From Fistulifera solaris (Eukaryota; Bacillariophyta; Bacillariophyceae; Naviculales; Stauroneidaceae), in contig AP026130.1 of the NCBI GenBank assembly GCA_030295235.1, positions 1,116,001-1,180,000 of the forward strand: 64,000 nt of DNA, written 5' to 3'. Below, piece by piece: positions 9,621 through 58,195 of this stretch. Under the pieces are notes generated by a model. It made no database searches. It was not told the origin of the DNA and worked only from the letters and a program-made list of their open reading frames with translations. Position 1 is the first letter of the stretch. Every line of letters begins with the position of its first letter. Both the position numbers and the translations under genes were made by a program.

Positions 9621-9789
9621 TACCACACACCCACATTTTTTAGGAGACGTGAAAAACCACACTCCCATATTTTCTGGATACGTGAAAATACCACCCGCCC
9701 ACATTTTCTGGAGGCGTGAAAATACCACACCCCCACATTTTCTGGATACGTGGAAACCCACTCCCTCACATTTTCTGGAAACGTGAAAA
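9621..9789 (+). repeat. minisatellite array 1 (five ~34-bp units)
   Basis: Five imperfect tandem units of 33-35 bp, each with a core like CCCACATTTTCTGGATACGT followed by GAAAA and a TACCACAC spacer. It lies between the divergent cyclophilin and DHX29 genes, about 105 bp from one start codon and 132 bp from the other. The same unit forms arrays at 42160-42295 and 57939-58195 and a single copy at 23417-23450. Confidence 0.93.
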
Positions 9790-9921
9790 AATCAGATGCG
9801 GCCAGAGGCCAAGGCACAATGGGAAAAGAACCGTAAGGTTTACTGATATTCTTTTACTTTGCATGTTGAATTTGTTTACATCCTTTTTATAACCCCATGT
9901 AAAACACATTTTGCTGTCGTC

Positions 9922-12900
9922 ATGGCGCGCAAAAAGGCCAAGGCTAAAGGTTCTGACACGCGGGGATACAATCAACAAAACAACTCGCATCAACTTCCGC
10001 CCAAGCGAAACACACCGTCTCACGAAGCCAAATCATCGTATGATGTCTCGAAAACCCGAACGTGCACGCTCCGTCTTACTGAAGCCATGGAAACAGAATT
10101 GCGGGAATTTTTGGGTGAATTTCCTTTGCCACAAACGACGGCGCTCCCGTCGGATCGCTTTGGAAAACGGCTCACCAACATTTACGATCGACTGATCGAT
10201 CTAGGCTTTGCCTTCCAAGATATCCAACAAGCTGTGTCGCAGTTGCGCTATCACATCACTTTAGAGCTAGCGCTAGACTGGCTGTGCTGGCATGTTGATG
10301 TTTTACCTCCAAGATTCACGGACGAACGACTCGATGTGTCAACAAACTCGTCCTTGGTCTGGGTGGAGCCGATGACGAAAGCAGTAAGGACTTCAGAGAA
10401 CAAATCAACTGTGGAGAGAGATTTCGACACTACAGTCGAGTTCGCTAAGCCCGGCACTCTTTACCAGAAATTCCAAGGAGGAGATCAGTGTGATGAAAAA
10501 GATACTGCCATGTCGGATGCTCAAAAGCAGTGGCTTCTTTCGCAGTATCAATACGAGGAGGAGGAAGACGGAGAAAAAGAAGATGACCATGACTTAAGCA
10601 TGTCATTAGACGATTCTTCACCCGGCACTATACTACGCGAAGATGATGAATTGAACCGGGATAGATTGAGACTGAAGCAACTCAAGGTGGAATTGGAGCC
10701 CCTGGAATCGCAATTGAATGACGAGGCGTCGTGCTATATTATGAGTAAGCACGAGCTCAAGGCGATGCACAGTCGCGTGAAACCTCTCAAAGGTCAGATT
10801 AAAGTGCTAGAAGAAAAAATCGCTGGTCGAGAAAGGAAACTTGAGCTCCAAAGTCCCGTACATGAGCCTTTAGTAGACGGTGATAACGAAGAGGACAATT
10901 TTTGGATATTTTTAGCATGAGCAACGAAGATACCAATTCTAACGTTGATAAAGCAATGTCCTCACAAGTGAAAAAAGATGATGGAGACGAAATCCCGCTA
11001 ACTATCCCGAAAGATTCCGTGCCGAAATCGTGGACGGGGATGAAACCCAAAGCTCTTCTCGAAGATTACTGTCGACGACACAAGCTTCCTCAGCCATCAT
11101 TTCAGCGTACGACGAAAACCTCGTGTACACTAAGATTGAAGGGTTCGACGGGTGAAGCAGAAGTGGGAGTGATTTATCAGAATGGCCCAACGCTTGATGA
11201 TGCGCAGCATTTTGCTGCAACAAAAGCATTGTTTCAATTAGATTCGAAGGCAAACATTCAACACCTCCTACCTCCTTTTCATCGCCAAGTTTGGTCGGAA
11301 TGGAGGAGCACGGCAAAATTGATGGAAGATAGAATTAAAATAGATGAGGGGGCGAAACGTAAAAACGAAATTGATCAGCTTTTGAATCTGTTATCTAACG
11401 ATGACGAGGTGGGTCGCCAAAACAACAAAAGTAGAACACGGGCTAGAGGACATGATGGATATAAACGACCAAGCAGAATATCTATGGAAGGAAGTGAAAG
11501 AATTAAATTTGAGCAGTTCAGCTCGCTTATCTCAAGAGAGCATTCAGCTGAAGAACGAGTTCGAGACCATGGTAAAGTCTGAGCAATATCGAAGGCATTT
11601 AGAACTGAGAGAGAAACTTCCCGTTTACGGCTTTCGAGATTCAATCATAGAAGCTATCGATAATAATCCGGTCACGATCATATCCGCAGAGACAGGAGCA
11701 GGAAAAACTACTCAGGTTTGTTATTGAATTGTTTTCTGCCCAGCACGTGTTTAATTGAGTCTAACGTCTTTCGCAGGTACCACAGTTTCTTCTATCGACT
11801 GCTTTATTACAAGGAAAAGGAGGTCTCACATCAATAATATGCACACAGCCTCGAAGGGTTGCCGCTACATCTGTCGCTGAGCGTGTTGCGGAAGAGGTTG
11901 GAGAGCGGTCTGTTGGCGGTTTGGTCGGCTATCAGATTCGAATGGAAAGTTCCAAATCCAGTCGAACAAAGCTTCTCTTTTGTACAACAGGTGTCATCCT
12001 GCGTCGACTAATCGAAGACCCTATACTGAACGGTGTATCGCACGTGGTAGTTGATGAAGTTCACGAACGCCAGTGGCAAATCGATGTTCTCCTCATGTCA
12101 CTGAAAACACTCATGCAAGGGAGACGACCGGATTTGAAAGTAGTTTTGGTAAGTCATTCCAGGCTCCGTCCTTATTGATTATCAACTTAAAACTCACAAA
12201 AAGACACTAAGATGTCAGCCACACTTGATTCTGGTCTTTTCTCGTCCTACTTTTGGTCTGCCCCTGTGTTGAGCGTCCCAGGGCGGACCTTTCCAGTGAA
12301 GAATTACTTTCTGGAAGATTTGCTCGAAAAGACAGGGCACATCATCGAAGAAGATTCTCGATACGCACATAGAAGCTTTGTACGAATGGACAAGGTTGAT
12401 TTACAGATAACGGAACGCGGGGGACGAAAGAGACGCGATGTCGCCTACTTGCAATCGCAGACAGATGCAGAAGTCTCAAAAGAATTCATGGGTTACTCGA
12501 TGTCTACGCGAAGGTGAATACATTGAATATATTGCGCATTACTTTGTCGCTGTACTAACTCGTTTGTTTTCAAGATCGATGGACAGAGTTGATGAGACGA
12601 TCCTCAACTATGACCTGATTGAAGATGTCTTGGAGCTTCTCTTCTCTCATTCAAACACCTTCACAACAACGGACAATGTTGAAGTAAAGAATGGAGCTGT
12701 ACTAATTTTTCTTCCGGGCTTGCGAGAAATTCGAACATTGATGGATCGACTGTCAGGAAGAACGATCTTCCGCAATAACGATAAGTTAGAGGTGATACCG
12801 CTGCATTCATCATTGTCATCAAAAGATCAACGGCGAGCATTCAAGCCAGCAAACAAAGGGTGCCGAAAAATCATCATTTCAACGAATATTGCAGAAACTA

Positions 12901-14198
12901 GCGTTACAATTCCGGACGTAACATGTATCATTGATAGCGGGCTAGTACGAGAAATTCAGCGCGACCAACGGACTGGAACGCAAAAGCTCGTAACGACATG
13001 GTGTTCGAAGGCAAATACTAAGCAGAGGTGTGGACGAGCAGGCAGGGTACAACCAGGGATATCGTTAAGACTCTTTTCGTCAAAGACTGAAGCTCTGATG
13101 AAGAGCGTCACTGATCCAGAATTGAAGCGAATACCTTTGGAAGAAGTTTGTCTGACGATTTTAGCATCTGGCTTGTCAACTTCGTGCAAATCATTTCTTG
13201 CAAATGCTCCTGAACCTCCATTGGTATCCGCCATCGACGTTTCCTTAGAAGAGTTAAGATGCATTGGTGCTATATCGATTGAAAAACCTGACGGAATTAG
13301 CTCCGATGGTCCTCGCGAAGAGTTGACCGCGTTGGGTGAGCACCTTACAAAGATACCAATCGATGCAAGATTGGGGAAAATGCTTATATATGGCACTATG
13401 TTTCAGTGCCTCGATCCGGCCCTAACTCTAGCTGCGTGTCTCTCTGCATCCCAAACCCCTTTCGTTTTGTCAATTTTGGATGGCGAGGAGGTTAAGGCTG
13501 CGCATTCCTCATTTCTTGATACTTCATCGGACTTTGTTACTTTGCTCAATGTGTGGGAAGGATTTGTGTCTGCCGGGTCCGCAGCGCGCCGATTTTGCCG
13601 TGAAAAGTATTTAAATTACAATGCCTTTCTTGAAATTGCAGATGCACGTGACCAATTCTTATCTCATCTGTGCACCATTGGGTTCGTTGATCGAAAAGTG
13701 CTTCTTGACGGCCAAAGAAATTACAACTTTCAGAGCAAATCACCTGATGTGATTCATTTCGTCATATGTGCCGGACTTTATCCAAACGTGGCCAAGATGG
13801 AATCTGACTTGGGGCTTGTCCACAAGACGGAAAAGGTTTCTATACACAACAGTTCTGTTAACGCGAAATCACTGAAAGATCGTCCGTCAGACTGGGTAGC
13901 ATTCCATGAGAAACTAGGAACCGGGCGCCAGATCACAATTTCAACCACATGCTTTGTACATCCTTTCTCGTTGTTTCTACTTGGACCAATGATTCACATT
14001 GAACACATCTTACGAGAAGTCGAGATAGATAATTGGATCAAGCTTACTTTGTCTGGAAAAACGGCAGTGCTGCTAAAAGGACTCAAACATCGGCTGGAAC
14101 GATCGCTGAAAAATTACATCCAACAAGTGAACGATGATAGCAACGTTTTTGACGTAAAGGTGATTGATAAAATCATCTCTATTTTATGTCAAGTCTAG
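9922..14198 (+). CDS. DHX29: DHX29-type DExH-box RNA helicase, two compensating frameshifts in this sequence
   Basis: ATP-dependent helicase that binds the 40S subunit and helps scanning through structured 5' UTRs. The N-terminal region carries DHX29-specific segments: [12 protein letters not shown]...LALDWLC (residues 95-125), and later [16 protein letters not shown] and [14 protein letters not shown]. The helicase core has GAGKTT (motif I), DEVHE (II), SAT (III), STNIAETS (V) and QRCGRAGR (VI). HA2 and OB-fold regions follow. GT-AG introns are at 11716-11776, 12149-12211 and 12514-12574. The frame moves at 10899-10903 (T5, one base short) and back at 11411-11413 (one G too many). With both corrected the protein is about 1363 residues, near the length of animal DHX29. 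The segment between the breaks is clearly coding, so this is one gene. Confidence 0.92.
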
Positions 14199-14257
14199 AA
14201 AATCATTGTCCCAAAAGATCGTAGCTTCAAAGTACTGTACAGTAAGATCATTTGAAT

Positions 14258-17051
14258 TTACATCGCAGCATTCGGCAGATTACTACCTCTTTGAATTTCA
14301 ATAAGGCGAACAATATTGTCGTAGCCCGCTTCGGAAAGCGACTTCTCTACTTCGTCAAAGAAGTTCGATTCTGGCTTCTCTTGGATTCGTCCCTCATTGT
14401 ACATGGTCCAAAGATCAAGCAAGATGTGACCGGCTTGGGAAACAGCCCCATTCTTCATTTCTGCTCTCGCCCAGAATTCAAAAGAGGTGCAATTTGGAAA
14501 CACATTCTTAATACCCCTTGCGTCCAGCGCCTTCATCTCTTCGACAAGTCCTTGTATCCTAGCTGTTGTGCCCACTTTACCGGATGTTGAGCACGAATAA
14601 ATAAGACTGTTGAAAGCATCGGTATCTGGCACCAGCCCCATTTCTTGCATATTTCGTAGTAAGGTTTCAACTTTTTCTACTCGATATTCATCTTCTGAAT
14701 GAGCGATTTGCCTCATTACTGATTTATACCTTCCAATCCTTGGTACGACGGCAGAACGCTTTTTCAGAAAATCTTCGTGCAATATCAACAGCAGACCGTA
14801 AGCATAGTCAGAGCGATCCTGGCGTTGGAACAGGTTTAATACTCGATCACACAAAATAGCATATAAAGCAAGCGGTTTGCCTTGCTTTAGTCGATGGGTT
14901 CGCATGCTCGTCACCAGGGAATAAGCTCGTTTTGCTGCCGTAGGAAGGGACGATCTCGCCCAACAAGAAAGAAGGGCGTCATAAATCTGTGCATCTGGAG
15001 GAGGAGCAAGACCTGCTCTGTACAAATCTAGCAACGTCTGCACGAGTTCGTCAGCTTTCAGCGCAGCGTCGCGTGCATAGGATCTATCCCAAGCGGAGAA
15101 GACAAGTCCAAAAGGTCGATCCGAACTCTTCCTAATTGCTTTTCCTTGGCTAACGAACAAATTCTCATCAAGACAGCATGCGCAATCTGCGGATCGGCTT
15201 TAGCAAAAGCCAATAGAATAGCTTTCAGTTGCATATGCTCGGGTTGCTGCCCAAATGCATTCTCCCTACAAAGCTCCATTGCTTCCCATACGAGCTCTGT
15301 GGCTCGATGTAATCCATCGTTGTGCAGCAACAAAATCTGTATGAGCATTGTATAAGAGTAAAAATCTGGTGGGGACTTGGTGCTCCTCTTCATTTCTTGA
15401 AACAATGAATCGGCTTCCTCACTTGCATTGACTGCCCTGTTGTTTGCGAAAAACAAAGATGCCAACATAACGTTGTAGGTCGCCGTATCTGGACCCGAGT
15501 CCAGAAATCCGAAATGGTATAGATCTTTTATCCGTTGAAATAACAGGCGTGTTCGGTCTACATTTCCTGCCCTCGACCATGCGTCCATTAAAGTGGTCAG
15601 AAGTGTAAGAGACGGCTTCAAGTCTTTACGACCCTCCATAAACAAAGAGTACACCTCGTCAACTAGGTCTTGAGCCTTCTCAGGCTGTGATGCCTTTGCA
15701 AATGCGTTCGTGACAGTAGCATAAGAGAATAGATCAGGTGGAGACTCTAGCTGTCCTCTGCTATGTAGGTCCTTCATCTCTTGCAGCAAAGATAGACAAC
15801 GATCTGCTTGACCAGCTCGAGCCCAGCAAGATAGAACGGTGTTAAATGTTTTGACATCAGCTTGAACAGGCGGAAAGGTCTTTGGGTCATACATGCGTGC
15901 CAGGAGAGATTGAACGCGTTCGGCGGCATTACTGCCGTGCGACCTCGCCCAAGCCGAGATGACCGTATTCCAACTCACGACGTCCGGCTTGGGTGCACTT
16001 CCTTTCCAATCCAGTAGCGGATATCCTTCCTGAAGTTGCCACTGTTCGCACATGTCTTTCAGCAACTGTTCCGCAGCCTCGCCGTTTCCAACCTTGGCGT
16101 AAGCCGCCAACAAGCAGTTGTAAGACCGAATGTCCAACGGGATAACGTTTTGCGCTCGTTCCAGAGTGCCCGCGCCCGATCCGGTCGCGCACAAGCCGTC
16201 CAAGACGACAAAACCTTATTTAATGCCTTCGTTCGTGGATGAAACGACCCAAGAGACGATGCATTTGGCTGATTTAATTCGGTCATCCGATCTAGCACTG
16301 CCTCGGCAAAGGCAGCCTCTGTGACAGACTTTAATCGCTTCGCCCTTCTTGAAGCTACACCCAAGATGACTTGCAACGAAGAGCCCGAAAGTTCAAGTGA
16401 TGGACTTTCATTACATAACTGGTCGAGTTTTGCGAGGAGCTGTGCCGGCAAGATGACACTCTCGCCGTTATTTTCTTTAATTGAATCATGCACACATTCC
16501 CAGTTTTCCACAAGACGATCAATGATTTGCCAATCCAGAAAATCTGAGGAAATGCTTGCGTTTCCTAGCTTTTGTTCATGTACCAGTCTCGAAAGGAGAA
16601 GTATTGACATCTGTACAGATAATGGTGTCTTTTGATAGGTCCACCATTCGAGTTGGTCTTCAGCGCTATTCCAGATGCTAGAATCGTTCGTACCCGGAGG
16701 AGTCTCTTGCAAAAATCGTTTTGTTCTTTCGAAAATATCGCGATCTTCCGTATAGGTTTGTGAGCTGTATAAACGATAACTCTTCCAAGGCAATGTAGAA
16801 GATATTTTCTGCTGCCATTGACACCTCTGTGCGGATGGAACTGCGAAAGTATTATAATGCGCGCATATCTTCTTAACAACATTCGACGGCAGTCCTTGTC
16901 GAAGCATCTTCTTGTATTCTCTACTTGTAACGGAGCTGATAGGTGTTATTACTACGTATAATCCGTTCTCTCTCTTGCAAATGCGCTTGCTCGATGCGAT
17001 GAAAATCAATGTATATCGGAGGTGCGCAGTACATCCGCATCCGGTTATCAT
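14258..17051 (-). CDS. pentatricopeptide repeat (PPR) protein, two frameshifts in this sequence
   Basis: Organellar RNA-binding protein built from repeated helix pairs of about 35 residues. Typical units are SYNCLLAAYAKVGNGEAAEQLL, SWNTVISAWARS, TFNTVLSCWARAGQADRCLSLL, SYATVTNAFAKASQPEKAQDLV and IYDALLSCWARS. The start is either 17051 or, more likely, the Met at 16907, which opens a basic, Ser/Arg-rich presequence (MLRQGLPSNVVKK) suited to mitochondrial import. The frame breaks at about 16169-16171 (C run) and 15140-15143 (T run). One added base at each joins three frames into about 931 residues (883 from the inner Met) with unbroken PPR periodicity. Such proteins bind specific organellar transcripts; the target cannot be told from sequence. 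It is convergent with DHX29. Confidence 0.9.
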
Positions 17052-17349
17052 GATGGATTTTATATATGCATCAACATTGTGACTATCATATCAACAAATC
17101 AAATATTTGTCGTAGCATGTCTGAACGCCAGACGAGCCTGAGGTGCACCAAAACATCGCGCAAAACATTTTTCGCAGCAACGTTCGACCGTTGAGAAAGA
17201 AAAACAAAATGAAACTGTTTCCATTATGATTTGTATAAGAAATTGTTTTGCACTTCACCAAAATACTTTTCAAGCTGCAACGCACCATCCGCGTCATTTC
17301 GCAGGAACTCGTATCATTGACGAAGCAGTCGAAATTGTTTACAACAAAC

Positions 17350-17859: not shown

Positions 17860-17979
17860 AGTGCAGGCTTCTGTTCATTCTAACTAACTACTACCTTTGT
17901 TGTTTTACACAAAATACTTAACAAGAATAACGTAACTCATCAGGTATCCATGTTCAACATAGATTTAGTCGTTAATGAG

Positions 17980-22183: not shown

Positions 22184-23351
22184 CTAAATAATACTCTTTC
22201 CCATCAACGATGTGATGATTTGAAGAGTCAATTCCGCTGTTTCATCCGCACCTGCGTCATTCGTAAGAGTCGGATTAAATTCCACGATATCCGCACTGGC
22301 TAGATTTCCAGTCTGTGCGATCGCCTCCGCAACAAAGTGGGCTTCACGGAATGTCAACCCACCGCGAACGGTTGTACCGGTCGCCGGAGCCAGCACCGGA
22401 TCTACAGCATCAATATCGTAGCTCAAGTGCAAGGGTCGATTTGGGTCTTTCTCTAGTAAGTGACCGATGGCCATCTCCATAACATTGCCGATGCCATACC
22501 GATCGATTTCATGCATAGTGAATGCCGAAATTCCCAAATCTCGAATGAGCTCTCGTTCAGCAGGGTCGACATCACGAAGACCAACATAAACGATGGAATC
22601 TGGGGGAAGACGGTTACGAAAGGTCTGATACAGCCAATCAAAACCCGGAACAGGTTCCGAGGGCGCGACCCCTTCCATGAGCAAGCCAACCGGCATTCCA
22701 TGCATATTTCCAGACTCTGACATGGCTGGAGTATTCAAATCAGCATGTGCGTCAACCCATATAACACCGGTGTGTGGTCGAGCACTCAGCACACCTGCTA
22801 AACTGCCGATTCCGATGGAATGATCACCTCCAAGAATCAAGGGAAACCTTCCTTTTTGATGGTATCTGAAACGAGCTTGGCTAGTTTCTCCGTTCCTTAC
22901 CAACAAGCCACGGGTTTCGTACGTTACCGATTCCAGCGGTCGGCTTGTGAGTTGTTGCATCATCGAAATCAAGATCCGGCAAATCTTCGACTCTCCAACC
23001 CAGAGCCGTCAACATGGATCGCAAACCACGTTGACGAAGAATCTCGGGTCCATGATCGGTCCCTACAAACGGCTGACCGTACGTCATGGGAGCTCCAATC
23101 ACAGTGCAAGTATGAGGATGAGCCACAGGACGATACAACTCTTCCCGTTTGACTGTAGGTAATATGCGGTTTCGAACAATACCGGGCCCTGTTGTCTTGA
23201 TGGCCTGGTCGGTGGAGAAGAAACGCAACGATCGGCAGCCGACGCGGTTTTGACGCCAACAAGAGATGGCCGATGAAATCATCCTTTGCTTTACAAGTGA
23301 AAGGAAAGCACGGAACGCACTTTGGGAAAAGGTGAAAACTGATAAAGACAC
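22184..23351 (-). CDS. arginase, mitochondrial type, two frameshifts in this sequence
   Basis: Hydrolyses arginine to ornithine and urea, closing the ornithine-urea cycle known in diatoms. The Mn-binding motifs are all present: GGDHSIG, DAHADLNTP and SYDIDAVDP, along with YVGLRDVDPAE and ATGTTVRGGLTFRE. The N-terminus (CWRQNRVGCRSLRFFSTD) looks like a mitochondrial presequence with an Arg-based cleavage site. Between the N-terminal and catalytic parts the frame moves twice, at 22895-22896 and at the T5 run 22853-22857. With one base added at each, the middle reads TEKLAKLVSDTIKKGRFP, exactly the arginase linker, and the protein is about 389 residues. One copy of the minisatellite unit sits 66 bp upstream of the start. 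Confidence 0.93.
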
Positions 23352-23416
23352 TTGGCCTTGATTGTGTAATAGGTGTTATGGGGATGGAGGATGGATGACG
23401 ATTGACGCAGGTTGTG

Positions 23417-23450
23417 ACACCAGGTACCCAGATTTTCTGGGAATGTGAAA
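23417..23450 (+). repeat. single copy of the promoter minisatellite unit
   Basis: Reads CAGATTTTCTGGGAATGTGA within a unit otherwise like the arrays. Positions 23427-23441 form a perfect inverted repeat, CCCAGA-TTT-TCTGGG. It lies 66 bp upstream of the arginase start. Confidence 0.7.
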
Positions 23451-23544: not shown

Positions 23545-23567
23545 CCAAGACTGCACTTCAGTCATGA
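23545..23567 (+). repeat. dispersed inverted-repeat element, copy 1
   Basis: Matches GACTGYRNTTYAGTCATGA, preceded by CCAA. Its arms GACTG and CAGTC pair around a five-base loop. Copy 2 lies 195 bp downstream in the same orientation, and more copies are near 46.1-47.0 kb. Confidence 0.6.
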
Positions 23568-42159: not shown

Positions 42160-42295
42160 ATTTTTCGCGTTTCCAGAATATATGGGAATGTGTTTTCACG
42201 TGCCCAGAAAATGTGGGGGTGTGTTTTTCACGTCTCCAGAAAATGTGGGCGAGTGATTTTACACGTTTCCAGAAAATCTGGGATTGCGTACCTGG
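42160..42295 (-). repeat. minisatellite array 2 (four units, inverted)
   Basis: Four tandem units of the same minisatellite as at 9621-9789, here read on the minus strand (plus strand CACGTCTCCAGAAAATGTGG). The last unit contains the inverted repeat CCAGA-AAA-TCTGG. It lies about 177 bp upstream of the EME1 start codon, in a 460-bp gap after the kinase gene. Confidence 0.9.
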
Positions 42296-42471
42296 TAGTG
42301 TTACCTCGTCGCTCGTCGCAGCATTGCAAATTTGATCTTTTTACATTCTCTTGTTGATGATGATTCATTCAAATGCATCTTGTTCATAACAATTAACTAT
42401 CCAACTCAATACAATAATATACAGGCAATTTGAATCATTATGCATGCACTTTGGTGTCAAGCGTAGCAAAA

Positions 42472-44337
42472 ATGAGTTCTGATGACGATAGCAACGATGA
42501 TCGGTACCTCGTTTCCGGCGGACTGTCGAAGCCTTTGAGAGAAAACCAAAATGAAACGATAATCAAACAGCCACCAATACGATCCAAAATAGCGTATGAT
42601 TCCAGTGACAGCGACGACGAAATTGTGGTAATGCCACCCGTGAAAGGTGCGAAATCGTCAGCATTGCCTTTGGGTCCCAAACTCACTGCTACCGGCTCCA
42701 ATGCGCGCGATCCTGTCAACATGGCAGATGATGAATCGGCGTCGTCTGATGACAGAACTTCTCCGCTCCAATTTACTTTAGCTCAGCGTCTAGCCCGTCG
42801 CAACGAAACAGAGAAACTCACATCGAATGCTATGCAAAATCATGTGAAGCGCAAGGATTCTTCAGAAAAGTCAAACACCTCGAACACAAGCAGTAACCCA
42901 GTGCGAAAAGAAAGTGCCCATTTGTCACAAGAAACAACCTACTCTATCGAAAACAAAGTTGGTCGCCTCAAGATGGCTACCAGTCAACCCGAAAGCTTGC
43001 CATCGCCCGCAAGTCGTAGCGATGAAAGCGTTCGTTTGATGACGAAAGGTATTAGCCAGCGAGCCAGTGAAAACACCACAAGATACGCCTCACTCGAAAG
43101 TGACAGTGACAGCGACGACTCATTGCTGGCGTGCTCGCAATTGAGTAATACTAGACCAGCTTCACAAACAGCACCAAGAATGAATCCCATCTTTGCCAAG
43201 AAACCATCAGCGAAAGCCCAACAAAAGGAATTAGCGAAAGAGATGAGAGAACAAGCCCGTCGGGACAAACAGTTGGCGAAAGAAATGGAAAAGGATATGC
43301 GACAACAGCAACGATTAGCGAAACAAGCTGCGGCTCAGGCGGAGAAAGACGATCGGAAGCGTCGGCGCATCGAATCCGATCAGACACGTGGAAAACGCGC
43401 GATTGACGAACTGGCCGTTCTCATGGAACATTCACTCTGCTATCACGAAGAGCTTACGCTTCGGAACGATTTGCAGGAAACAGGCTTTCTTGTAGATAGT
43501 TATCCTAGCGGTCTGGGGTGTGATGTAGTTCAGTTCATTCGATATGATTATGTCAATGGCGGAGGAACACGAGCGGTCGAAATGCTCAAGCAAAGCAAAC
43601 GAGAAGAGTATCAGCATCTTCCTATTGTTGGCGTTGTATTTCACGATCCGATGGATTTCATTTCGAAGATAGAACGGGATGCACATGACGAAGACGATGA
43701 TTATCCAAAGCTGGAATCTTTTTTGAAAGGTCTCGAAGTCGGATGGCGAGCAGCATGGCGACTTGGTGCAGAACAACGCCCACGATTCATTTTCTATCTG
43801 AATAACGTACACGCGACGCTGGACCAACTTTGGGTGAAATCTCGGAGAAAAGACCAGTCCATGAAAGCTCCTCCAACTGGCGAAGAGCTGCAAGATGCCT
43901 TAATCTGGTTGTCCATTCAATTCTGTGTCGATTGTATTCATTATCTTTGCCCCGAAGACCTGTCGACACAAATAAACAAAATGGCTGTGTGGCTAGCACG
44001 AGAACCTTACCAACGACAAATGACGGACCTGGAATGCGCCAAGAAGACAAAAATGCAGTGTTCCGACATGGATCCGCCTCTGGTTCGGTCGCAAGACTGC
44101 TGGAGACGCCAACTCTGTCAAGTTCCTGGAATTAGCGAAACCATGGCATCATCAGTAGTTAGCTATTTCCCTACCATGCGTTCTTTGTATCTCCGTTACC
44201 AAGACAAAAGTCTGACGGAAGATCAGAAGATTCTTCTTCTTGCCGACTGTTTTGGACGTGAAGGACGGCGAGATGTAAAATGTTCAGATGCTGTTTATCG
44301 AATACTAACTAGCAAAAACCCGAACGAGCTGATCTGA
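42472..44337 (+). CDS. EME1: EME1/MMS4-like subunit of the MUS81 structure-specific endonuclease
   Basis: Non-catalytic partner of MUS81, which cuts branched DNA at stalled forks and in recombination. Intact frame of 621 residues from MSSDDDSNDDRY. The first 260 residues are disordered with acidic-Ser clusters (YDSSDSDDEIV, LESDSDSDDSLL), typical of MMS4 regulation by CDK/Plk. A long basic helix follows (KEMREQARRDKQLAKEMEKD). The ERCC4-like fold comes next without the metal-binding nuclease motif. The C-terminal helix-hairpin-helix region is CWRRQLCQVPGISETMASSV, then SYFPTMRSLYLRYQ. Its ATG follows a minisatellite array by about 180 bp. Confidence 0.82.
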   Translation: MSSDDDSNDDRYLVSGGLSKPLRENQNETIIKQPPIRSKIAYDSSDSDDEIVVMPPVKGAKSSALPLGPKLTATGSNARDPVNMADDESASSDDRTSPLQFTLAQRLARRNETEKLTSNAMQNHVKRKDSSEKSNTSNTSSNPVRKESAHLSQETTYSIENKVGRLKMATSQPESLPSPASRSDESVRLMTKGISQRASENTTRYASLESDSDSDDSLLACSQLSNTRPASQTAPRMNPIFAKKPSAKAQQKELAKEMREQARRDKQLAKEMEKDMRQQQRLAKQAAAQAEKDDRKRRRIESDQTRGKRAIDELAVLMEHSLCYHEELTLRNDLQETGFLVDSYPSGLGCDVVQFIRYDYVNGGGTRAVEMLKQSKREEYQHLPIVGVVFHDPMDFISKIERDAHDEDDDYPKLESFLKGLEVGWRAAWRLGAEQRPRFIFYLNNVHATLDQLWVKSRRKDQSMKAPPTGEELQDALIWLSIQFCVDCIHYLCPEDLSTQINKMAVWLAREPYQRQMTDLECAKKTKMQCSDMDPPLVRSQDCWRRQLCQVPGISETMASSVVSYFPTMRSLYLRYQDKSLTEDQKILLLADCFGREGRRDVKCSDAVYRILTSKNPNELI

Positions 44338-48486: not shown

Positions 48487-48624
48487 TTGTAAATTGCTAA
48501 ATTAATTGCTGTAAAGCTGATGCATTGCGAGATCGACAGTTCTTTTCACGATAACCTACCGACATGAGTACTTCGTAAACACTGGGAACAAAACAAAACT
48601 AGCAATGGTTAACATTCGATTCTT

Positions 48625-50863: not shown

Positions 50864-51670
50864 ATGACAGTAGCAATCTGCATTCAACAGGAGCCGGAAC
50901 TGGAGACGATCAAGAGTTCTTCCTCGGTAGGCGGAAGCGAGTGTAGCAAAAGCCTAAGCCTTGGAGGGAGAAAATCGGTCCGGTTTTCTTTGAAACGAAA
51001 CGAAATATTCATTCTAAGTGATGACTATGAGGGAGTAGAAATCAGCGAAATTTGGTTTGGTGGCGACGAGTTCATCCGAATCAAAGCGAAATCGCGGGAA
51101 GAATCGAGGCAATGGAGACGTCTGGGTTATAGCGTCCTCCTCAAAGAGTGCTTTCACCGAAGAGATCCGGATGTGCAGCATCAGCTGAATGCCTTTTGTC
51201 AGCTAGAAGATGAACTATGCCGTCGAGGACTCGAGCGGCATTTATCAAAACAGCATGCCGAAGAGCGATCTGACTGCAAAGATATTTCGAGACAGGCTGT
51301 GCTTTCTACTCAAAAGCGAATGAGAAATAAAGATGCTAACAGCGATGAAACAATCAGAATGGTGTCAGAAGCCTATGAACAGCAAACACGAAGCTCCAAG
51401 ATGTTCGCACATCGTATGGGACTTGCTGATGAATATACAGTCAAGAAAGGGTGCAATTCGAGCGCGGCAAGCAAATATCTCGAAGAGGAAGAATACGAAG
51501 GCGGGGGAAGGCGAAGAATGCAGCGACGTCTGAGTAATTACTCGGTGGTGTCGACAAATTCAATGGATTCACGCCGAAGGTGGCTTGCGACAACAGAGCG
51601 GCAAAAACGCCGACCCACACCCGCTTCACCGGCTTCCGTATCCGATGATTTCTACGCAGCGATTGCGTAG
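50864..51670 (+). CDS. conserved-looking basic protein of unknown function (RGLE motif)
   Basis: 268 residues from MTVAICIQQEPELE; the frame is open from 50750, which would add a hydrophobic stretch (VAYWVLLFVLASILF) and could make a signal anchor. The sequence has KSVRFSLKRNEIFIL, then SEIWFGGDEFIRIKAK, then CRRGLERHLSKQHAEE, then AVLSTQKRM and IRMVSEAYEQQTRSS. To my memory this order (VRFS, WF/WY, RGLE, AVL..Q) recurs in many diatom proteins of unknown role. The C-terminus is Arg/Ser-rich. No catalytic motif is seen. Confidence 0.6.
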   Translation: MTVAICIQQEPELETIKSSSSVGGSECSKSLSLGGRKSVRFSLKRNEIFILSDDYEGVEISEIWFGGDEFIRIKAKSREESRQWRRLGYSVLLKECFHRRDPDVQHQLNAFCQLEDELCRRGLERHLSKQHAEERSDCKDISRQAVLSTQKRMRNKDANSDETIRMVSEAYEQQTRSSKMFAHRMGLADEYTVKKGCNSSAASKYLEEEEYEGGGRRRMQRRLSNYSVVSTNSMDSRRRWLATTERQKRRPTPASPASVSDDFYAAIA

Positions 51671-51939
51671 TTTGCATGACTTCTTATATTTCATATTAAG
51701 ACTAATGGTGCTTTTTCATAGAGGGGACAATCAAAGGATAATGATAATGATCATTTGCGCTAGACTATTACTATATCCACGCTCATATGATTATAATGGA
51801 GGGTAGAAAGTAACGACGATCAAATACTGGCTTTAATAACTTACATAATTCTACACGAGATCATGAACGAGTTATCTCCACGTTCAGCCACTATGTTCTT
51901 GGCCGGGGCTACTATTTACAGTGAAGGAGTTCGACAACT

Positions 51940-53160
51940 CTACCGTCTTTTGCGCCGATTTCGAATAGCACAAAATGCGATTACTATCCCAAGGATACCA
52001 AATGCAAGGAGTACCCACGCCCATGGCTCCATTTTCTTCTCTTCCGATATACCCTTCACTTCTACGACAGGGGGGTTTGTTGCTGTCAAATTGGTTTCAG
52101 GGCCTTCATCATCTCCAAAGTCTACGACGTATGACACGTCCACGACGTCGGGGTGAACCGCGTTGAGCAGTCCTTTTTCCATCATCTCTTTTGCCGAGAC
52201 GAATACAAAAGGTTCAGTCCAGTTCAAAGGTAGCGTGTCATCTTGCGACAATATCGTCAAGGCACCAGATACTACAAAACAACGTCTCGCGTTTCCCAGC
52301 AATGACGTTCTGCATCTCACTTGTAAAGGAAGGAAAATGTGAGCCGCAAAGACCTCCATACGTTTCACCACATTGTACAGGATGCTTATCTCACCTCCGT
52401 CTACTCCCGGAAGGACTGTATCCTTTGGTTCAGATAGGAGACCTGATACAGTCGCCCCATCGATTGGTTGATCCACAGAAATGCGTGTCTCTGAAACGGT
52501 GATACTTGTGTCCGAGCAGAGTGAATCGGCAAAGACGTTTGTTATCAAATGCCGAGCGAGAGCTTTTTCCAGAAAAAACAAAACCTCTTCTTCCATTCTC
52601 ACGACGGTTTGATTCAATGTGGTTTGGACCTGATAAAGAAAGGAAATCTGATGTGTCTGCGTCCCTGTTCCGAAGTCACCGTCGGTATTGGTTTCGCACG
52701 ATGGATTTGACGTCGTAGTGGGTGGACTCGTTGCTTCATTTTCCGGAGCAGGATCTTTTGTTGTCGAGGTTTCGTTACCAATTGACGGCGTAGTGGGTGC
52801 GTCAGTTCCTTCACCCTCCGCACTTGGCTCATTAGTTGGAGGGGTTTCGTTACCAGTTGGCGGCGTTGTGGGCGCAGTAGTAGCTTCCTCTTCCGGAGCA
52901 GGTTCACTGGTTGCAGCGGTTTCGTTACCAAGCACATCTTGCTCACCTGGCGTGGAGCAATATCGAGAATCTAAACACAAGGCGTCCAAATTGAGTTGAC
53001 GTGTGGGGTTCTGACGAAGCGATCTTCGCTCATATTTTGTGCCGTCCATGACAGTTCCTGGAGCGATTGCTTGCGTTTCAATAAACTCTTTCTTGACGAC
53101 TGCGTTGCTCTGATTGGGGGAAAGGTGAGTATGCCGAGTCAGTAAGGGACGGGCAAGCAT
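51940..53160 (-). CDS. single-pass membrane protein with three 25-residue Thr/Pro repeats
   Basis: An intact 406-residue frame. Residues 75-155 hold three tandem repeats of about 25 residues, each starting GNET (an N-glycosylation sequon) and continuing with EP/DP-A-P/E and TTxPTTP, a mucin-like stalk. A mixed alpha/beta region of about 200 residues follows with several Cys and Asn-x-Thr sequons. A membrane helix (WAWVLLAFGILGIVIAFCAI) and RNRRKRR end it, placing the bulk outside. No N-terminal signal peptide is visible, so a 5' exon may be missing. Adding one base in the AAAA before the stop would extend the tail to 51884; this is uncertain. The family is unknown. Confidence 0.62.
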   Translation of the reverse strand: MLARPLLTRHTHLSPNQSNAVVKKEFIETQAIAPGTVMDGTKYERRSLRQNPTRQLNLDALCLDSRYCSTPGEQDVLGNETAATSEPAPEEEATTAPTTPPTGNETPPTNEPSAEGEGTDAPTTPSIGNETSTTKDPAPENEATSPPTTTSNPSCETNTDGDFGTGTQTHQISFLYQVQTTLNQTVVRMEEEVLFFLEKALARHLITNVFADSLCSDTSITVSETRISVDQPIDGATVSGLLSEPKDTVLPGVDGGEISILYNVVKRMEVFAAHIFLPLQVRCRTSLLGNARRCFVVSGALTILSQDDTLPLNWTEPFVFVSAKEMMEKGLLNAVHPDVVDVSYVVDFGDDEGPETNLTATNPPVVEVKGISEEKKMEPWAWVLLAFGILGIVIAFCAIRNRRKRR

Positions 53161-53660
53161 TCATTATTGGTTATTGGTTGTTTGTCGTCAGTTATTGTCA
53201 CGTTTTGCCGTGAAAGTCCAAGTGCCAATAGAGGCGAGCAGAAAGAGAAAAGAGGTGCGAAAAAATGGAACCCGTGTTGTGCCACAAGCCACAAGCCACA
53301 AGTGTGCCATAAGCCATAAGCCATAAGTATCCGAGAAAGGCCCTTTACGATACGTCCATTCTCCAGTCCGTCATAAATCGTCAACTACTATGAATCACGA
53401 AGTATACACTCGATCAAAATTCAAAATGACCCGATAGTCTGTCCCACTGTCCGACTCACGCTATGCACCGTTGCCAGTTGCCATGACCCATGACCCATGA
53501 CCATGACGCGTTTTACAAACTACCAGTATCTTTGACGCTAATGAGGCAAAGGGCTCATTCTTTCGACAATAAAAGTATCAATAAAAACAGTTCGAGTTCT
53601 GCGTAACGTCTTATCCCCTCTTGATATCAAAGTAACTAAGATATTTTCTTTTACTGATTA
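53161..53660. other. divergent promoter region with short tandem words
   Basis: About 500 bp. CCACAAG three times then CCATAAG three times at 53281-53329, and repeated CATGACC at 53482-53503. No gene is supported. Confidence 0.45.
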
Positions 53661-54782
53661 ATGAAGGCAATGTCCGTATTCTTCGCGACCGCGATCGTGG
53701 CCGCCTCAAAGGCATTTTCTTTTCGTTCTTTGAGAACATCATCCACTCGGTTGTTTTCGTCCGTCAGCAAGTCCAGCGCTCCTCCAAGATATAATGAAAA
53801 GGATGTTCAATTGATGAAAAACATCTTATACCGCGTCCGAGCAGTGAATCAAATGCCGGAAGAAGTGCGATCTAGCTTGATAGAATTTCATATTGACGGC
53901 GTTTGTGTCGGAAAGGTCGACCCATCTATTGCGGATCTAGTTTGTTCGGCGGACACTGTTTTTACCATAAATCAAGACAACATGTTGACGCTGACAGCAG
54001 ATGCAGGAACAACATTTGACTCTCGTACACGAGCGGTGGCTAGGGTCATGGAGAAATTACGAGACGATGGAATTGTGCAAGGATGGCGCAATGAGGATTA
54101 TCCGGTGAGCACGGGTTTTTACGATGAACCCTTTTTCGTAATTGAGCGAGCTGCCGCTGCCTTTCTTGGGATACTGGAATATGTAGGTAGACGCTGAATG
54201 GGCTAGTGTTTGTGAATTTCAAGGCGTTCCCACTCATCATTAGTCTTGCTACAGGGAGTGCATATTAATGGCTTAGTCAGCAGCGATGACGGATCACAAC
54301 CTCGTATGTGGATAGGTCGACGATCACCTACCAAATCGAAGTACCCTGGCATGCTAGATCACATTGTTGCCGGTGGGCAACCCGCAGGGCTTTCGTTGAT
54401 GGAAAATGTGGTCAAAGAGTGCACGGAGGAAGCGGGCATTCCGGAGCACCTGACTTTGGCCGGGGTTCGACCAGCCGGAGCTATCAGCTACGAGACCTAT
54501 TCGACAAAGCATAAAGCAGTCTCTCGTGTCGTACTTTTCAATTATGATCTCTATCTTCCAGCTGATTTTGTTCCAAAGCCGGTCGATGGTGAAGTGGACG
54601 AGTTCTTTCTCTGGACTATAGATCAAGTTCTTGAATCGATGGATCCCGACTACCCAGATCCAATCAAGCCGAATTGCTACAGCGTGATCATTGATTATTT
54701 GCTACGTGAAGGTCATATATCTCCAGAAGTCCCTGGCTATCTCGATGTGTTGAAAGAACTTAGGAGCGGAGATTGTAGATAG
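53661..54782 (+). CDS. plastid-targeted TNR3-type Nudix hydrolase (DUF4743 + Nudix)
   Basis: Exons 53661-54182 and 54255-54782 with a 72-nt GT-AG intron give about 349 residues with no repair; the splice creates LEYGVHINGLV, as in TNR3 homologues. The N-terminus (MKAMSVFFATAIVAASKAFSF) is a signal peptide ending ASKA|FSF, a diatom plastid signature. A DUF4743 region follows, then a Nudix box: GGQPAGLSLMENVVKECTEE. Plant and yeast relatives hydrolyse damaged thiamin diphosphates or show thiamin pyrophosphokinase links. Cleaning up damaged thiamin diphosphate in the plastid is therefore a reasonable inference. Confidence 0.88.
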
Positions 54783-55072
54783 GGGATAGCGAGCTAGAGG
54801 GGAATCTTAGAGATTAGAGACTCTAAAAGGACTTCTTGGGTTCGCATGCTCGCAAGGCTAGATCTAGAACCACAAGAATTTGAAATAGTAAACAAAGAAT
54901 TTACTGTTATTAATGGTCAGAAAGGAAGATTTGACTTTATCCACCCCATTTATTAAAATATCATTTTACCATACAACAGTAAATGACAACAACCAGATGA
55001 AAAAAGAGACTTGATGAGATAATAGAACGCCGACTACTTCACAGAGATGTAGTGGCCAGTTAGAGCAGAGAT

Positions 55073-55553
55073 TTATTCTCCCTTTTCATCCGCTGGCTCG
55101 GCATCATCACCTTCGGCTTGATCACTGGTCCACAGCGTCAAGTTATCTCGAAGAAGCTGCATGATCAGTGTTGAATCCTTGTATGACTCCTCGTTGAGGG
55201 TATCGAGCTCAGCGATGGCATCGTCGAACGCTTGCTTGGCAATCTGGCAAGCCTTGTCGGGGGAATTCAGAATCTCGTAGTAGAATACGGAGAAGTTGAG
55301 GGCAAGACCCAACCGAATGGGGTGTGTTGGCGGGAGATCGGAGCTCGCGATGCCACTGGCGGCTTGGTAGGCATCAAGAGCCGCGCTGGCACTCTCCTTT
55401 CGGGTGTCACCGACCTGGAACTCGGAAAGGTAGCGGTGATAGTCTCCCTTCATCTTGTAGTAGAAAACCTTGGCCTCCTCCGAAGTAGAGTTGGGGATCA
55501 AAGAGTCTTCGATGATGCTGAGAATGTCGTTGCAGATCTCAACAAGCTCGGTT

Positions 55554-55584
<31 letters not shown>

Positions 55585-55807
55585 TCATCTTGTCCGGGTC
55601 TCCTTTTTGCTCAATGCTGGTGACAACACGCCACGAGGCACGACGAGAGCCAATCACGTTCTTGTAGGCAACCGAAAGCAAGTTGCGCTCTTCGACGGTG
55701 AGTTCTTGCGGTTGACGAGCAACGTCCTTCATGTCGGAGACCATCTCGTCGAAACGCTCGGCTTGCTCAGCGAGCTTGGCCTTGTAAACTAGAGCTTCAC
55801 GATCCAT
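55073..55807 (-). CDS. 14-3-3 protein
   Basis: Dimeric adaptor that binds phosphoserine/phosphothreonine motifs. 244 residues, the family's usual length, in one intact frame. Signatures are [16 protein letters not shown] (dimer helix), [20 protein letters not shown] (ligand groove), [15 protein letters not shown] with the phosphate-binding Arg-Tyr pair, [14 protein letters not shown] and [12 protein letters not shown]. The tail is acidic. Codon usage looks strongly biased and the frame is clean, consistent with high expression. Confidence 0.97.
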
Positions 55808-56691
55808 TGTTATCCTATTTTATTATTGCCGAAGTAAGTTGATTCGAACGCAAGTTTTTTATGATCCAAAATGGCTCTGCACGGCGATGGCACTGCGAGC
55901 AGACCGCACACCGCACACGGCTGCCTCACAGCGAATTACTACTTCCGTTGCGACAGTGTTTCCGAATTCCTACACAGTTATTCATAGTTACGTGTCCGAT
56001 GACTGCGGCAATTGTAAGGTGACCCTCTTCAAAACACTATAGTCATTAGAGTCGGCTACTTTCTGAAGGATACACGTCGCACACCGCTCCGCGCGCCTCC
56101 GCAATCGGAAGTCGTCGAATTTTGGAAGGCGGAAGACGAACCTTCGACAAAAAAAAGAGAAAGAGAAGGATCTGGAACAAACAATCGCATCGACAGCCAG
56201 ACGCCAATCGTCGGGTCGTCGACCGTCAATGCGAATTACGTCCACACGCCATACACTTCCTTCCAAACTGCGAGGTCGAAATGCATCCAAGACTGGTCAT
56301 TGTTCCTGTATAGCTCAATGTGTTCTATTTATTCTTGATCTCGCTTGCTGGTTGGCGTGAAAAGTCCGTCCGCTCCGAGTTTCGAGTTGGAGTGGAAAGA
56401 GAGGGGCAAAGATCGGACGGTTCAAGTAATCGCGGAAGGTGTTCTTGCTTCTTGTTGCACTGTACCCTGTCCGACTAATAAACGGGATAGAAGAGCAAGT
56501 GATCCTGTTGGCACTTAACATCCTTTCACGGAATCCAGCTGGAAAATGGGTGCAAGATGCCAAATCTCCACCCACCTTACGCGCGCCTTTATTTTCTACA
56601 ATCTCCCGAAGCGAAAAAACATACACAACTTAAAACGTTTCTTTATCAAAGCTATCTATCTTGCGTAATAATTCATCGAACAAACAAAGGA
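55808..56691. other. intergenic, no confident gene
   Basis: About 880 bp upstream of the 14-3-3 gene and of the 56692 frame. Open frames on both strands here (for example 56122-56313) are Arg-rich and lack conserved character. No repeat is recognised. Confidence 0.4.
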
Positions 56692-57099
56692 ATGTCATCA
56701 ACAATAATGAATTTCACCGCCGATACTTTCACAGTCGAACAATTGTCATCGACAAGGCGATCAAAAATTCTCGACGACCACAGCTCCGCAACAAGTGTCA
56801 CAGAAATGGAAAACTCCACCAGCCAAAGTGAAGAATTGGGATCATCGTTAGATCTGGGGACTGACGCTCGACATTGTAGGGGGTTGGCGGATTCAAGTGA
56901 ATGGGATGACTCGTTTGCCGGGGAAGATTCATTCGCCGTACACGAAGGGACTGGACCCTATCGACCGGTGGCATTTCGCGAGCTGGTGACCGTTGGTGAA
57001 CACGGAGAAGAGGAAGACGAGGAAGAAGAAGACGACGACGAGAAAAGCAACGGCGACAACAAGTCGAGTCCATTACATTCAGAAAGAAAAACGAATTGA
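56692..57099 (+). CDS. small acidic hypothetical protein
   Basis: 135 residues from MSSTIMNFTADTFTVEQL. Ser/Thr-rich, then a WDDSF/EDSF pair, a short FRELVTVGE segment and an EEEDEEEEDDDEK acidic run. No family is recognised. Composition is consistent with a real disordered protein, but it could also be a chance frame. It is convergent with the MOSC gene, with stops 40 bp apart. Confidence 0.4.
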   Translation: MSSTIMNFTADTFTVEQLSSTRRSKILDDHSSATSVTEMENSTSQSEELGSSLDLGTDARHCRGLADSSEWDDSFAGEDSFAVHEGTGPYRPVAFRELVTVGEHGEEEDEEEEDDDEKSNGDNKSSPLHSERKTN

Positions 57100-57138
57100 A
57101 TTACTTACAGCTAGCGAACGGCTTTACCAGCCGATACC

Positions 57139-57828
57139 TTACAATACTTGCGTCAGAACCGACTCTGGAACAATTGCACCTTCTTTAATAACTTTTGCAT
57201 ACCATCCGCGAAGCCCGGGCTTTGAATCTAATAAACTTATAAATTCTTGACAGTCTTTGATACGCTCTTTGGGTGTCTTCGAATCATTATTGATGTACGG
57301 TAATTTGCATAGATTAGCGCAAGGAATAACGGGTTCGGTAATCTCTAAAACAACCTCGTTTTCACTGCATTTGAAACGATATTGCTTCCCAGGCTCAAAG
57401 AAAGAATAACAGACTTTATCCAACAACATGTTTTCTCCTAGATCACCGTCCGCCACCGGATACTCATATGATCTCAAAAGTTCCATTGTATCGGTGGTAA
57501 GCAAAGAAACCGCCCGATCGGGTGTTCCCTTCAAGGCAATGCTTCTGTAATGGTTGTAGTCCCCTCGAACGCCTGCCTTGCTAACCCAGATTTCCTCTTT
57601 CTGTTCGTCCTTTCGTGTCGTGTAAAACCGACTCGATGGCCTGGAACTCTCGTCATCGTATTTCCGTGCAGCTAGTCGACAAACGTAGCCAATTGGCAAT
57701 GAATTATCACCGTTAAGTATGGATTTGGACGCCAATAATTTGCGATCGTCCTTTACCCCCATTGAAGCGCAATCGGTCCACTCTCCGACGAACATTACGA
57801 GAGGAACGAAGACTCGCAGGGAAACCAT
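57139..57828 (-). CDS. MOSC-domain protein
   Basis: MOSC domains bind sulfur or molybdenum cofactor through a conserved Cys; bacterial YiiM relatives detoxify N-hydroxylated compounds. 229 residues in one intact frame, with a hydrophobic N-terminus (MVSLRVFVPLVMFVGEW) that may be a signal peptide. The domain shows WVSKAGVRGDYNHYR, YPVADGDLGENMLLD, FEPGKQYRF, VVLEITEPVIPCANLCKLPY with the key Cys, and GLRGWYAKVIKEG. It shares a 560-bp divergent promoter, including a minisatellite array, with the SET gene. Confidence 0.85.
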   Translation of the reverse strand: MVSLRVFVPLVMFVGEWTDCASMGVKDDRKLLASKSILNGDNSLPIGYVCRLAARKYDDESSRPSSRFYTTRKDEQKEEIWVSKAGVRGDYNHYRSIALKGTPDRAVSLLTTDTMELLRSYEYPVADGDLGENMLLDKVCYSFFEPGKQYRFKCSENEVVLEITEPVIPCANLCKLPYINNDSKTPKERIKDCQEFISLLDSKPGLRGWYAKVIKEGAIVPESVLTQVL

Positions 57829-57938
57829 AATAATAGAAAAAAATCTTCAGGTAGTCATGTAGCTTCCATTTCAAGCATGCCCTCGAACATAAACAGGTGA
57901 TCGATAGAGACGCTCCGAATTTGTGAGAGAGTTCAGTG

Positions 57939-58195
57939 GACGTGAAAACACCACACCCCCCGCTTTTTCTGGGTACGTGAAAACATTACACCCCCACATT
58001 TTCTGGGTACGTCTAACACCACGCGCCCACATTTTCTGGCTACGTGAAAACATTACACCCCCACATTTTCTGGGTACGTCTAACACCACACACCCACATT
58101 TTCTGGGTACGTCTAACACCACTCACCCACATTTTCTGGGTACGTGTATAAACACCGCACTCCAACATTTTCTGGGTACGTGGAAAACACACGCG
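57939..58195 (+). repeat. minisatellite array 3 (seven units)
   Basis: Seven tandem units with core CCCACATTTTCTGGGTACGT. Unit ends partly alternate between GTGAAAACATTACAC and GTCTAACACCAC, suggesting a two-unit higher-order period. It lies about 110 bp from the MOSC start and about 195 bp from the SET start. Confidence 0.94.

What the first reader, a model, noticed from the sequence alone, without database searches (positions are those of the whole stretch)
9621..58195. A minisatellite family found only upstream of start codons
The same ~34-bp unit forms arrays at 9621-9789, 42160-42295 and 57939-58195, plus a single copy at 23417-23450. Every one lies 65-200 bp upstream of a start codon, two of them in divergent promoters (cyclophilin/DHX29 and MOSC/SET) and the others before EME1 and arginase. 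None is at a convergent 3' gap, although several exist in the window. That placement suggests a mobile or amplifying promoter element, or a nucleosome-free insertion preference.
Basis: seen in the sequence. Interest (0 to 1): 0.75.

Follow-up and report, generated by a model that had tools for sequence, protein, structure and literature searches.

The report
Palindrome arrays upstream of diatom genes

Summary
The three arrays and the single copy are where stated, each upstream of a gene. The genome is a diatom with paired chromosomes. In 46 array or cluster sites with both neighbours predicted, 27 are divergent, 19 tandem, 0 convergent, none coding; 40 of 46 are nearer a gene start than a gene end. 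Convergent gaps here are short, so their avoidance alone is weak evidence.

The 34-bp unit is one branch of something larger. A common form of its core is a palindrome, CCAGA-NNN-TCTGG: 4,309 copies genome-wide against 30 for the reversed control, with a strict gap of 3. Other arrays, with very different spacers, alternate it with a related weaker site at about 20 and 32 bp. Flanking arm bases covary, and the core is the least variable part of most arrays tested. This fits a dimeric protein's binding sites (inferred, about even odds) better than neutral minisatellites.

The arrays also turn over. All three window arrays are absent from the homeologous gaps on C12, and the commonest unit variant has 23 clusters on C1 but 2 on C2. 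So 'mobile or amplifying promoter element' is partly supported; an insertion preference is not shown.

The parts
9616..9789 (+). Array 1: five ~34-bp units, core CCCACATTTTCTGG; gap between cyclophilin (-) and DHX29 (+)
   Evidence: TRF; cores; absent from homeologous gap L057 on C12
42156..42295 (-). Array 2: four ~33-bp units in reverse orientation, upstream of EME1, between two + genes
   Evidence: TRF; cores; absent from homeologous gap L058
57939..58195 (+). Array 3: seven ~33-bp units between the MOSC gene (-) and a + coding segment
   Evidence: TRF; cores; absent from homeologous gap L056
23427..23441 (.). Single full palindrome CCCAGATTTTCTGGG in the divergent arginase gap, preceded by ACCAGGTA
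   Evidence: sequence
8678..9217 (-). Cyclophilin gene (left neighbour of array 1)
   Evidence: PF00160 E 9e-25
9922..10920 (+). DHX29 N-terminal part (right neighbour of array 1)
   Evidence: PF24899 E 2.2e-8
42472..44337 (+). EME1-like gene downstream of array 2
   Evidence: PF21292 E 5.1e-7
57139..57828 (-). MOSC-domain gene (left neighbour of array 3)
   Evidence: PF03473 E 2e-8
22184..22963 (-). Arginase, main ORF (left neighbour of the single copy)
   Evidence: PF00491 E 4.5e-61

Best explanation
The 34-bp minisatellite is one branch of a genome-wide family of arrays whose common element is a 3-bp-spaced palindrome, NNNCAGA-NNN-TCTGNNN, or a one-step variant of it. I think the palindromes are binding sites of a dimeric (or paired) DNA-binding protein, set in clusters at preferred spacings (about 20, 31-35 and 50-53 bp) in the upstream intergenic space of many genes of a diatom, where they act in cis on one or both flanking genes. 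Arrays grow by tandem duplication, spread between promoters, are gained and lost quickly, and while they persist selection keeps the core and lets the spacers drift. Shown on samples: palindrome, strict gap, spacings, non-coding mostly upstream placement, lower diversity of the core within arrays, arm covariation, absence from three homeologous gaps. Inferred: that a protein binds, that it is a dimer, that transcription is affected, that selection is the cause of the low core diversity, and how units spread.
For: CCAGANNNTCTGG: 4,309 against 30 for the reversed pattern genome-wide. Gap exactly 3: 213 in 355 kb of held sequence, the other gaps from 0 to 12 give 0-3. Of 30 permutations of the half-site CCAGA with the same gap, CCAGA gives 199 and the next best 2 (a slightly different set of loci). 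0 coding, 78 non-coding in 262 kb. Arrays with very different spacers share palindrome and geometry; spacing peaks at 19-20, 31-35 and 50-53. The core is the low-diversity part: in 31 array alignments with units set by TRF, its mean rank among all rotations of the same mask is 0.12, and 22 of 31 are in the lowest tenth. Outer arm positions 1-4 are complementary more often than permuted (189 vs 142, 167 vs 114, 133 vs 68, 82 vs 61 of 245 unique contexts); with one palindrome per cluster (43 clusters) positions 2 and 3 still exceed permutation (0.58 vs 0.38; 0.50 vs 0.26).
Against: No binding, expression or chromatin data. All three window arrays are missing from the homeologous gaps, so they are dispensable there or new. 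Covariation of arm bases is not what a simple additive binding site predicts; it suits a hairpin or a palindrome-perfecting mutation process as well. The commonest 34-bp core on C1, CCCACATTTTCTGG, breaks the palindrome at one position, and the second site in several 52-bp arrays is asymmetric (ACAGAAAATCTGG in L050). Nine of 31 arrays are not in the lowest tenth for core diversity, among them window arrays 1 and 3 (0.24, 0.25) and L002, L003, L004, L005 (0.36-0.67). Spacings are not strictly whole helical turns (34 bp is 3.2 turns). Arrays were found by the core, which favours some core conservation.
Confidence: 0.5

Rival explanations
1. Self-propagating palindromic minisatellite without host function: hairpins of the palindrome promote template switching and tandem duplication, perfect the arms, and seed new loci; purifying selection removes copies from genes, leaving those in roomy upstream gaps.
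For: Arm covariation; three perfect forms fold as 8-9 bp stems with 3-nt loops, -6.3 to -8.5 kcal/mol as single-stranded DNA; absence from three homeologous gaps; the same unit variants on several chromosomes.
Against: Does not explain why only CCAGA-NNN-TCTGG is used (29 other half-sites give 0-2 copies), nor the recurring spacings in arrays with very different spacers. The 34-bp core common on C1 folds poorly (-2.9) and so does the second site ACAGAATTTCTGT (-2.4 kcal/mol).
Confidence: 0.25
2. Mobile element remnant: units are the repeats of a non-autonomous transposon (MITE or Helitron type) that inserts near promoters.
For: Dispersed over many contigs in both orientations; absent at 3 of 3 homeologous gaps; a few loci share 38-127 bp of flank (L002/L005, L004/L005, L002/L007); an ~84-bp near-palindromic element is shared by L015, L019, L023, L025 and L038 and in four of these lies within about 105 bp of an array or palindrome cluster, though these loci were fetched for their arrays.
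Against: With arrays masked, no body, terminal repeat or flank is common to the array loci at large; shared pieces link only subsets, some of them gene duplicates (flanks listed). Array 1 begins where homology to the homeolog stops, but the homeolog carries a different stretch of similar length there instead of an empty site (about 243 vs 263 bp).
Confidence: 0.12
3. Ordinary promoter minisatellite, placed by available room only: intergenic space is mostly upstream space, so any tolerated repeat ends up there.
For: In length-matched random non-coding placements 61-67% are nearest a 5' gene end and only 6-12% convergent; P of 0 of 27 convergent is 0.03-0.16.
Against: 25 of 27 arrays nearest a 5' end, P 0.0003-0.002; the core's low diversity and the shared geometry of different arrays are not explained by room.
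Confidence: 0.1

Closest known systems
Bacterial REP/BIME palindromic units (recalled)
   Same: Short imperfect palindromes, many copies, extragenic, in clusters that alternate with short and long spacers, arms that vary in a paired way
   Different: Eukaryotic nuclear genome; upstream rather than 3' gaps; arrays up to 31 units; association with a RAYT transposase not tested
Homotypic clusters of transcription factor sites formed by local duplication (PMC3188502, abstract and outline seen)
   Same: Neighbouring sites related by local duplication, then diverging
   Different: One palindrome used at many loci (extrapolated to over a thousand), with long regular arrays that turn over between loci; factor unknown
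Heat shock elements, nGAAnnTTCn (recalled; HSF genes are expanded in diatoms, recalled)
   Same: Inverted GAA/TTC-like half-sites near gene starts
   Different: Dyad centre is odd: gap 3 between CCAGA and TCTGG; the gap 4 that canonical HSE phasing needs occurs 0 times in 355 kb
Euchromatic satellites dispersed without a transposon, by eccDNA or gene conversion (Drosophila 1.688 type; recalled)
   Same: Tandem units shared across chromosomes with lineage-specific variants and locus turnover
   Different: Much shorter units with a constrained palindrome; found here in non-coding, mostly upstream gaps

Membership tests
Heat shock element arrays | GAA and TTC half-sites separated by two bases (CCAGA..TCTGG gap of 4) | tested here: not met
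   gap 4: 0 copies; gap 3: 213 copies
REP/BIME | Palindromic unit repeated in intergenic clusters | tested here: met
REP/BIME | Alternating units with short and long spacers | tested here: met
   20/32 bp alternation in L018, 34/19 in L050, 31/22 in L053; not in the 34-bp branch, which has one spacing; second site often asymmetric
REP/BIME | Bacterial genome | tested here: not met
   genome is a diatom (silicon transporter family)
REP/BIME | Associated RAYT (TnpA-REP) transposase | not tested
   no search for such a gene was made
MITE or Helitron | Common element body or termini at each insertion | tested here: not met
   no flank common to the array loci with arrays masked; shared pieces link subsets only, including an ~84-bp near-palindromic element in five loci
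MITE or Helitron | Target-site duplication against an empty site | tested here: inconclusive
   three homeologous gaps read; none gives a clean empty site
Homotypic TF site cluster | Motif more conserved than spacer within clusters | tested here: met
   22 of 31 arrays in lowest tenth, mean rank 0.12; 9 of 31 not
Homotypic TF site cluster | A protein binds the motif and changes transcription | not testable with these tools
   needs EMSA, DAP-seq or reporter

The most novel reading that the evidence does not exclude
A diatom lineage has evolved a genome-wide regulatory or genome-organising layer made of one palindrome (CAGA-NNN-TCTG), set in arrays whose spacer sequences are free but whose geometry is kept, on the order of one cluster per 37 kb; the arrays spread from promoter to promoter and differ between the two parental chromosome sets of an allodiploid, so they rewire homeologous promoters: a eukaryotic counterpart of BIMEs acting on gene starts.
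Probability: 0.3. Interest if true: 0.85.

Novelty: new variant of a known kind. Interest (0 to 1): 0.7.

Why it matters
If the palindromes bind a protein, one factor could touch a thousand or more diatom gene starts, and the homeolog pairs (array present against absent, matched stretches 85-90% identical) form a ready natural experiment on how promoter repeats change expression after hybridisation. It would also show how a binding site can spread through promoters as a moving tandem repeat while its own core stays fixed.

Tried and rejected

Literature: searches (open-licence PMC texts only) gave no paper on this palindrome or on a promoter minisatellite in a diatom, judged from the listings; the core strings themselves hit eight papers on other subjects. 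In PMC5935921 (passages seen) promoter motifs of Fistulifera solaris were sought and the short motif TABASTA is named; palindrome arrays are not mentioned in those passages. Its supplementary tables were not read.

Organism: 18S was sought by family (all failed) and by pattern (one search failed, one search gave 0 hits). The silicon transporter family settled 'diatom'. Species not fixed: paired contigs resemble allodiploid Fistulifera, but 61 contigs do not obviously match the 42 pairs in PMC5935921.

Helical phasing: rejected as a strict rule; 20 and 31-32 bp fit 10.5-bp turns, 34 does not, and in L047 gaps of 59 and 155 occur.

Viral or prokaryotic origin: a 21-base pattern gives 0 hits in viral contigs and genome contigs; the A-20-B pattern 0 in viral contigs; two close palindromes gave 4 viral contigs, holding two to four palindromes each in the stretches read and no regular array, taken as chance.

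Convergent avoidance as proof of promoter targeting: dropped, because convergent gaps are short (median 161 bp) and the null gives P 0.03-0.16.

Full report
WHAT IS THERE. The three arrays and the single copy are real and at the stated places. Window genes beside them are cyclophilin, DHX29, arginase, EME1 and MOSC by Pfam; the SET gene was not tested. The window lies on contig C11 of a 51.7-Mb genome in 61 contigs. That genome holds a strong silicon transporter family (PF03842, E 3.5e-222), with copies on C15 and C16 and on C23 and C24 in matching arrangement, and further ones on C27 and C29. It is therefore a diatom with, it seems, paired and diverged chromosomes. C11 pairs with C12: three window stretches match C12 at 85-90%. 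C1/C2 and C3/C4 look paired from one locus each (L027/L031 and L036/L004). This resembles allodiploid Fistulifera (PMC5935921, passages), but the species is not fixed.

HOW COMMON. The 14-mer CCCACATTTTCTGG has 513 exact copies and its reversed control 0. CCCAGATTTTCTGG has 441 against 0 and CCCATATTTTCTGG 169 against 0. On C1 the first forms 23 clusters; in the 22 of these read the units of an array all point one way.

PLACEMENT. I wrote a simple coding HMM trained on long ORFs and used it on 262 kb (window plus L009-L028). It is not a full gene annotation. All arrays of at least two units in that set were classed: 27, of which 16 divergent, 11 tandem, 0 convergent, 0 coding. Two of the 27 are nearer a 3' than a 5' gene end (L018 at 5645 and window array 2). 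Single matches (up to 2 mismatches) were left out of this count; three of them lie in predicted coding sequence (L021 4198, L024 5920, window 16535). Further sites with both neighbours predicted: 8 of the 10 loci L029-L038 and 4 of the 8 loci L039-L046, and 7 of the 9 palindrome loci L047-L055. The other 8 loci had a neighbour off the end or unpredicted and were dropped. L002-L008, chosen by similarity to array 3, were not counted; none of them is convergent. Total 46: 27 divergent, 19 tandem, 0 convergent. Among the added 19, four are nearer a 3' end (L035, L044, L047, L050), so 40 of 46 are nearest a gene start. The sites are not all independent (L027/L031, L012/L013 and L033/L034 are related).

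Null for placement: length-matched random positions overlap coding in 69-78% of draws, and of non-coding draws 61-67% are nearest a 5' end and 6-12% convergent. Against this, 25 of 27 nearest a 5' end has P 0.0003-0.002, divergent excess P 0.009-0.02, and 0 of 27 convergent only P 0.03-0.16. With the wider core definition 29 of 33 are nearest a 5' end, P 0.0007-0.007. So exclusion from genes is very strong, nearness to starts is supported, and convergent avoidance alone is not.

THE PALINDROME. Position 5 of the core varies between C, G and T, and the G form is a palindrome, CCAGA-TTT-TCTGG. Searching CCAGANNNTCTGG genome-wide gives 4,309 against 30 for the reversed pattern. The first 100 listed sites, on C1 up to 560 kb, form about 15 clusters, one per 37 kb. 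Extrapolated that is some 1,400 clusters, from part of one chromosome only. In held sequence the gap of 3 is strict (213 copies; the other gaps from 0 to 12 give 0-3), and of 30 permutations of the half-site only CCAGA is frequent (199 against at most 2). In the 262-kb set 78 are non-coding and 0 coding. The shorter core CAGA-NNN-TCTG is 115 non-coding and 4 coding. With arrays masked by 100 bp either side, few single palindromes remain: 4 in 36 kb of upstream, 0 in 16 kb of downstream and 0 in 153 kb of coding sequence (both strands counted, so 2 sites).

OTHER ARRAYS WITH THE SAME PALINDROME. L018, L025, L027, L047, L050, L051, L053 and L055 carry arrays whose spacers differ from the 34-bp unit and strongly from each other, though BLAST still aligns some pairs at 66-77%. 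They repeat CCAGAnnnTCTGG and, between these, a second weaker site: ACAGAnnnTCTGT itself in L018, L025, L027, L053 and L055, asymmetric forms such as ACAGAAAATCTGG in L047, L050 and L051. Examples: 20 then 32 bp in L018, 34 then 19 in L050, 31 and 22 in L053. Over the held loci, distances between neighbouring palindromes (one mismatch allowed) peak at 19-20 (79 cases), 31-35 (319) and 50-53 (53); L047 has gaps of 59 and 155 as well. In L018, L025 and L027 34-bp arrays stand beside such arrays.

ARM COVARIATION. Outside CAGA/TCTG, 245 unique contexts were tested. Positions 1 to 4 out are complementary in 189, 167, 133 and 82 cases against permuted means 142, 114, 68 and 61; positions 5 and 6 are not raised. 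Drawing one palindrome per cluster (43 clusters) keeps the effect at positions 2 and 3 (0.58 vs 0.38, 0.50 vs 0.26), weakens it at 1 (0.66 vs 0.53) and nearly removes it at 4 (0.31 vs 0.26). This treats clusters as independent, which is only partly true.

CORE CONSTRAINT. For 32 arrays picked by me from those held, I let TRF set the units, aligned each array to its consensus by wrap-around dynamic programming, and compared diversity of the ten core columns with every other rotation of the same mask. One array (L014) gave no TRF result. Of the other 31, the core is in the lowest tenth in 22, with mean rank 0.12. The nine others are L002, L003, L004, L005, L011 (first array), L018, L024 and the window arrays 1 and 3. 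A first version on 21 arrays gave lower core than spacer diversity in 21 of 21 (means 0.070 against 0.237). Arrays were chosen because they contain the core, which biases somewhat in this direction.

TURNOVER. The C12 counterparts of all three window gaps lack the array and any exact CAGANNNTCTG palindrome. For array 1 homology stops at the array's left edge and resumes past it, but C12 has a different stretch of similar length, not an empty site. Which side changed cannot be told. Two other pairs that look homeologous both carry arrays: L027 with 3 units and L031 with 15; L004 with 31 and L036 with 7 in the opposite orientation. These were found through their arrays and cannot be used as a rate. 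CCCACATTTTCTGG has 68 sites in 23 clusters on C1 but 2 in 2 on C2. CCCATATTTTCTGG has 6, 38, 4, 36 and 2 sites on C1 to C5, but this is dominated by a few long arrays; by clusters it is 6 against 5 on C1 and C2. CCCAGATTTTCTGG has 31 sites on C1 and 48 on C2, no contrast. So only the first variant is a firm sign that unit variants are shared across loci within one parental set.

HOW IT WORKS. I favour binding sites of a dimeric protein (0.5): strict gap, fixed half-site, free spacers, preferred spacings, constrained core, upstream placement. Against it: no binding data, absence from the homeologs of the three loci tested, and arm covariation, which a hairpin or palindrome-perfecting mutation explains at least as well. 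Perfect forms fold well as single strands (-6.3 to -8.5 kcal/mol); the common 34-bp core (-2.9) and the second site (-2.4) do not. A mobile element with a body is unlikely, though five loci share an ~84-bp near-palindromic element, four times close to an array. Placement by room alone does not explain the palindrome.

NOVELTY. Promoter tandem repeats, homotypic site clusters and bacterial palindromic arrays are known kinds; I found no description of this combination in the searches named in Tried and rejected, which cover open-licence texts only. I call it a new variant of a known kind.

Noticed in passing
L015 4712-4794, L019 9364-9450, L023 5110-5179, L025 8079-8158, L038 1302-1384: An ~84-bp near-palindromic element, 88-99% alike between these loci in its best orientation and matching itself in the other; looks like a small foldback element. 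Four of the five copies lie within about 105 bp of an array or palindrome cluster; the one in L019 is over 4 kb away.
   Followed up: no
window 23419-23426 and 42289-42297; L031, L012, L023, L028: Short symmetric motif TACC-A/T-GGTA (or part of it), often near the arrays: 19 non-coding against 1 coding in 262 kb.
   Followed up: partly
L056 about 186-205 and 742-760; window 23549-23566: Another symmetric motif around GACTG..CAGTC (13 non-coding, 1 coding in 262 kb), present in the C12 gap that lacks array 3.
   Followed up: partly
G000 C4 1067355-1075146: A ~3.3-kb unit repeated three times; the two copies read (L004, L006) each have a divergent gap with a 31-unit array, and the C3 counterpart L036 has 7 units in the opposite orientation.
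   Followed up: partly
window 52707-52931: 75-bp tandem repeat inside a coding ORF (51940-53160, minus strand), so in-frame protein repeats.
   Followed up: no
L010 674-2030, L014 399-1273, L018 34-1142, L038 423-1299: Longer tandem repeats (about 200-430 bp) in four array loci; L010 and L038 are related to each other.
   Followed up: no
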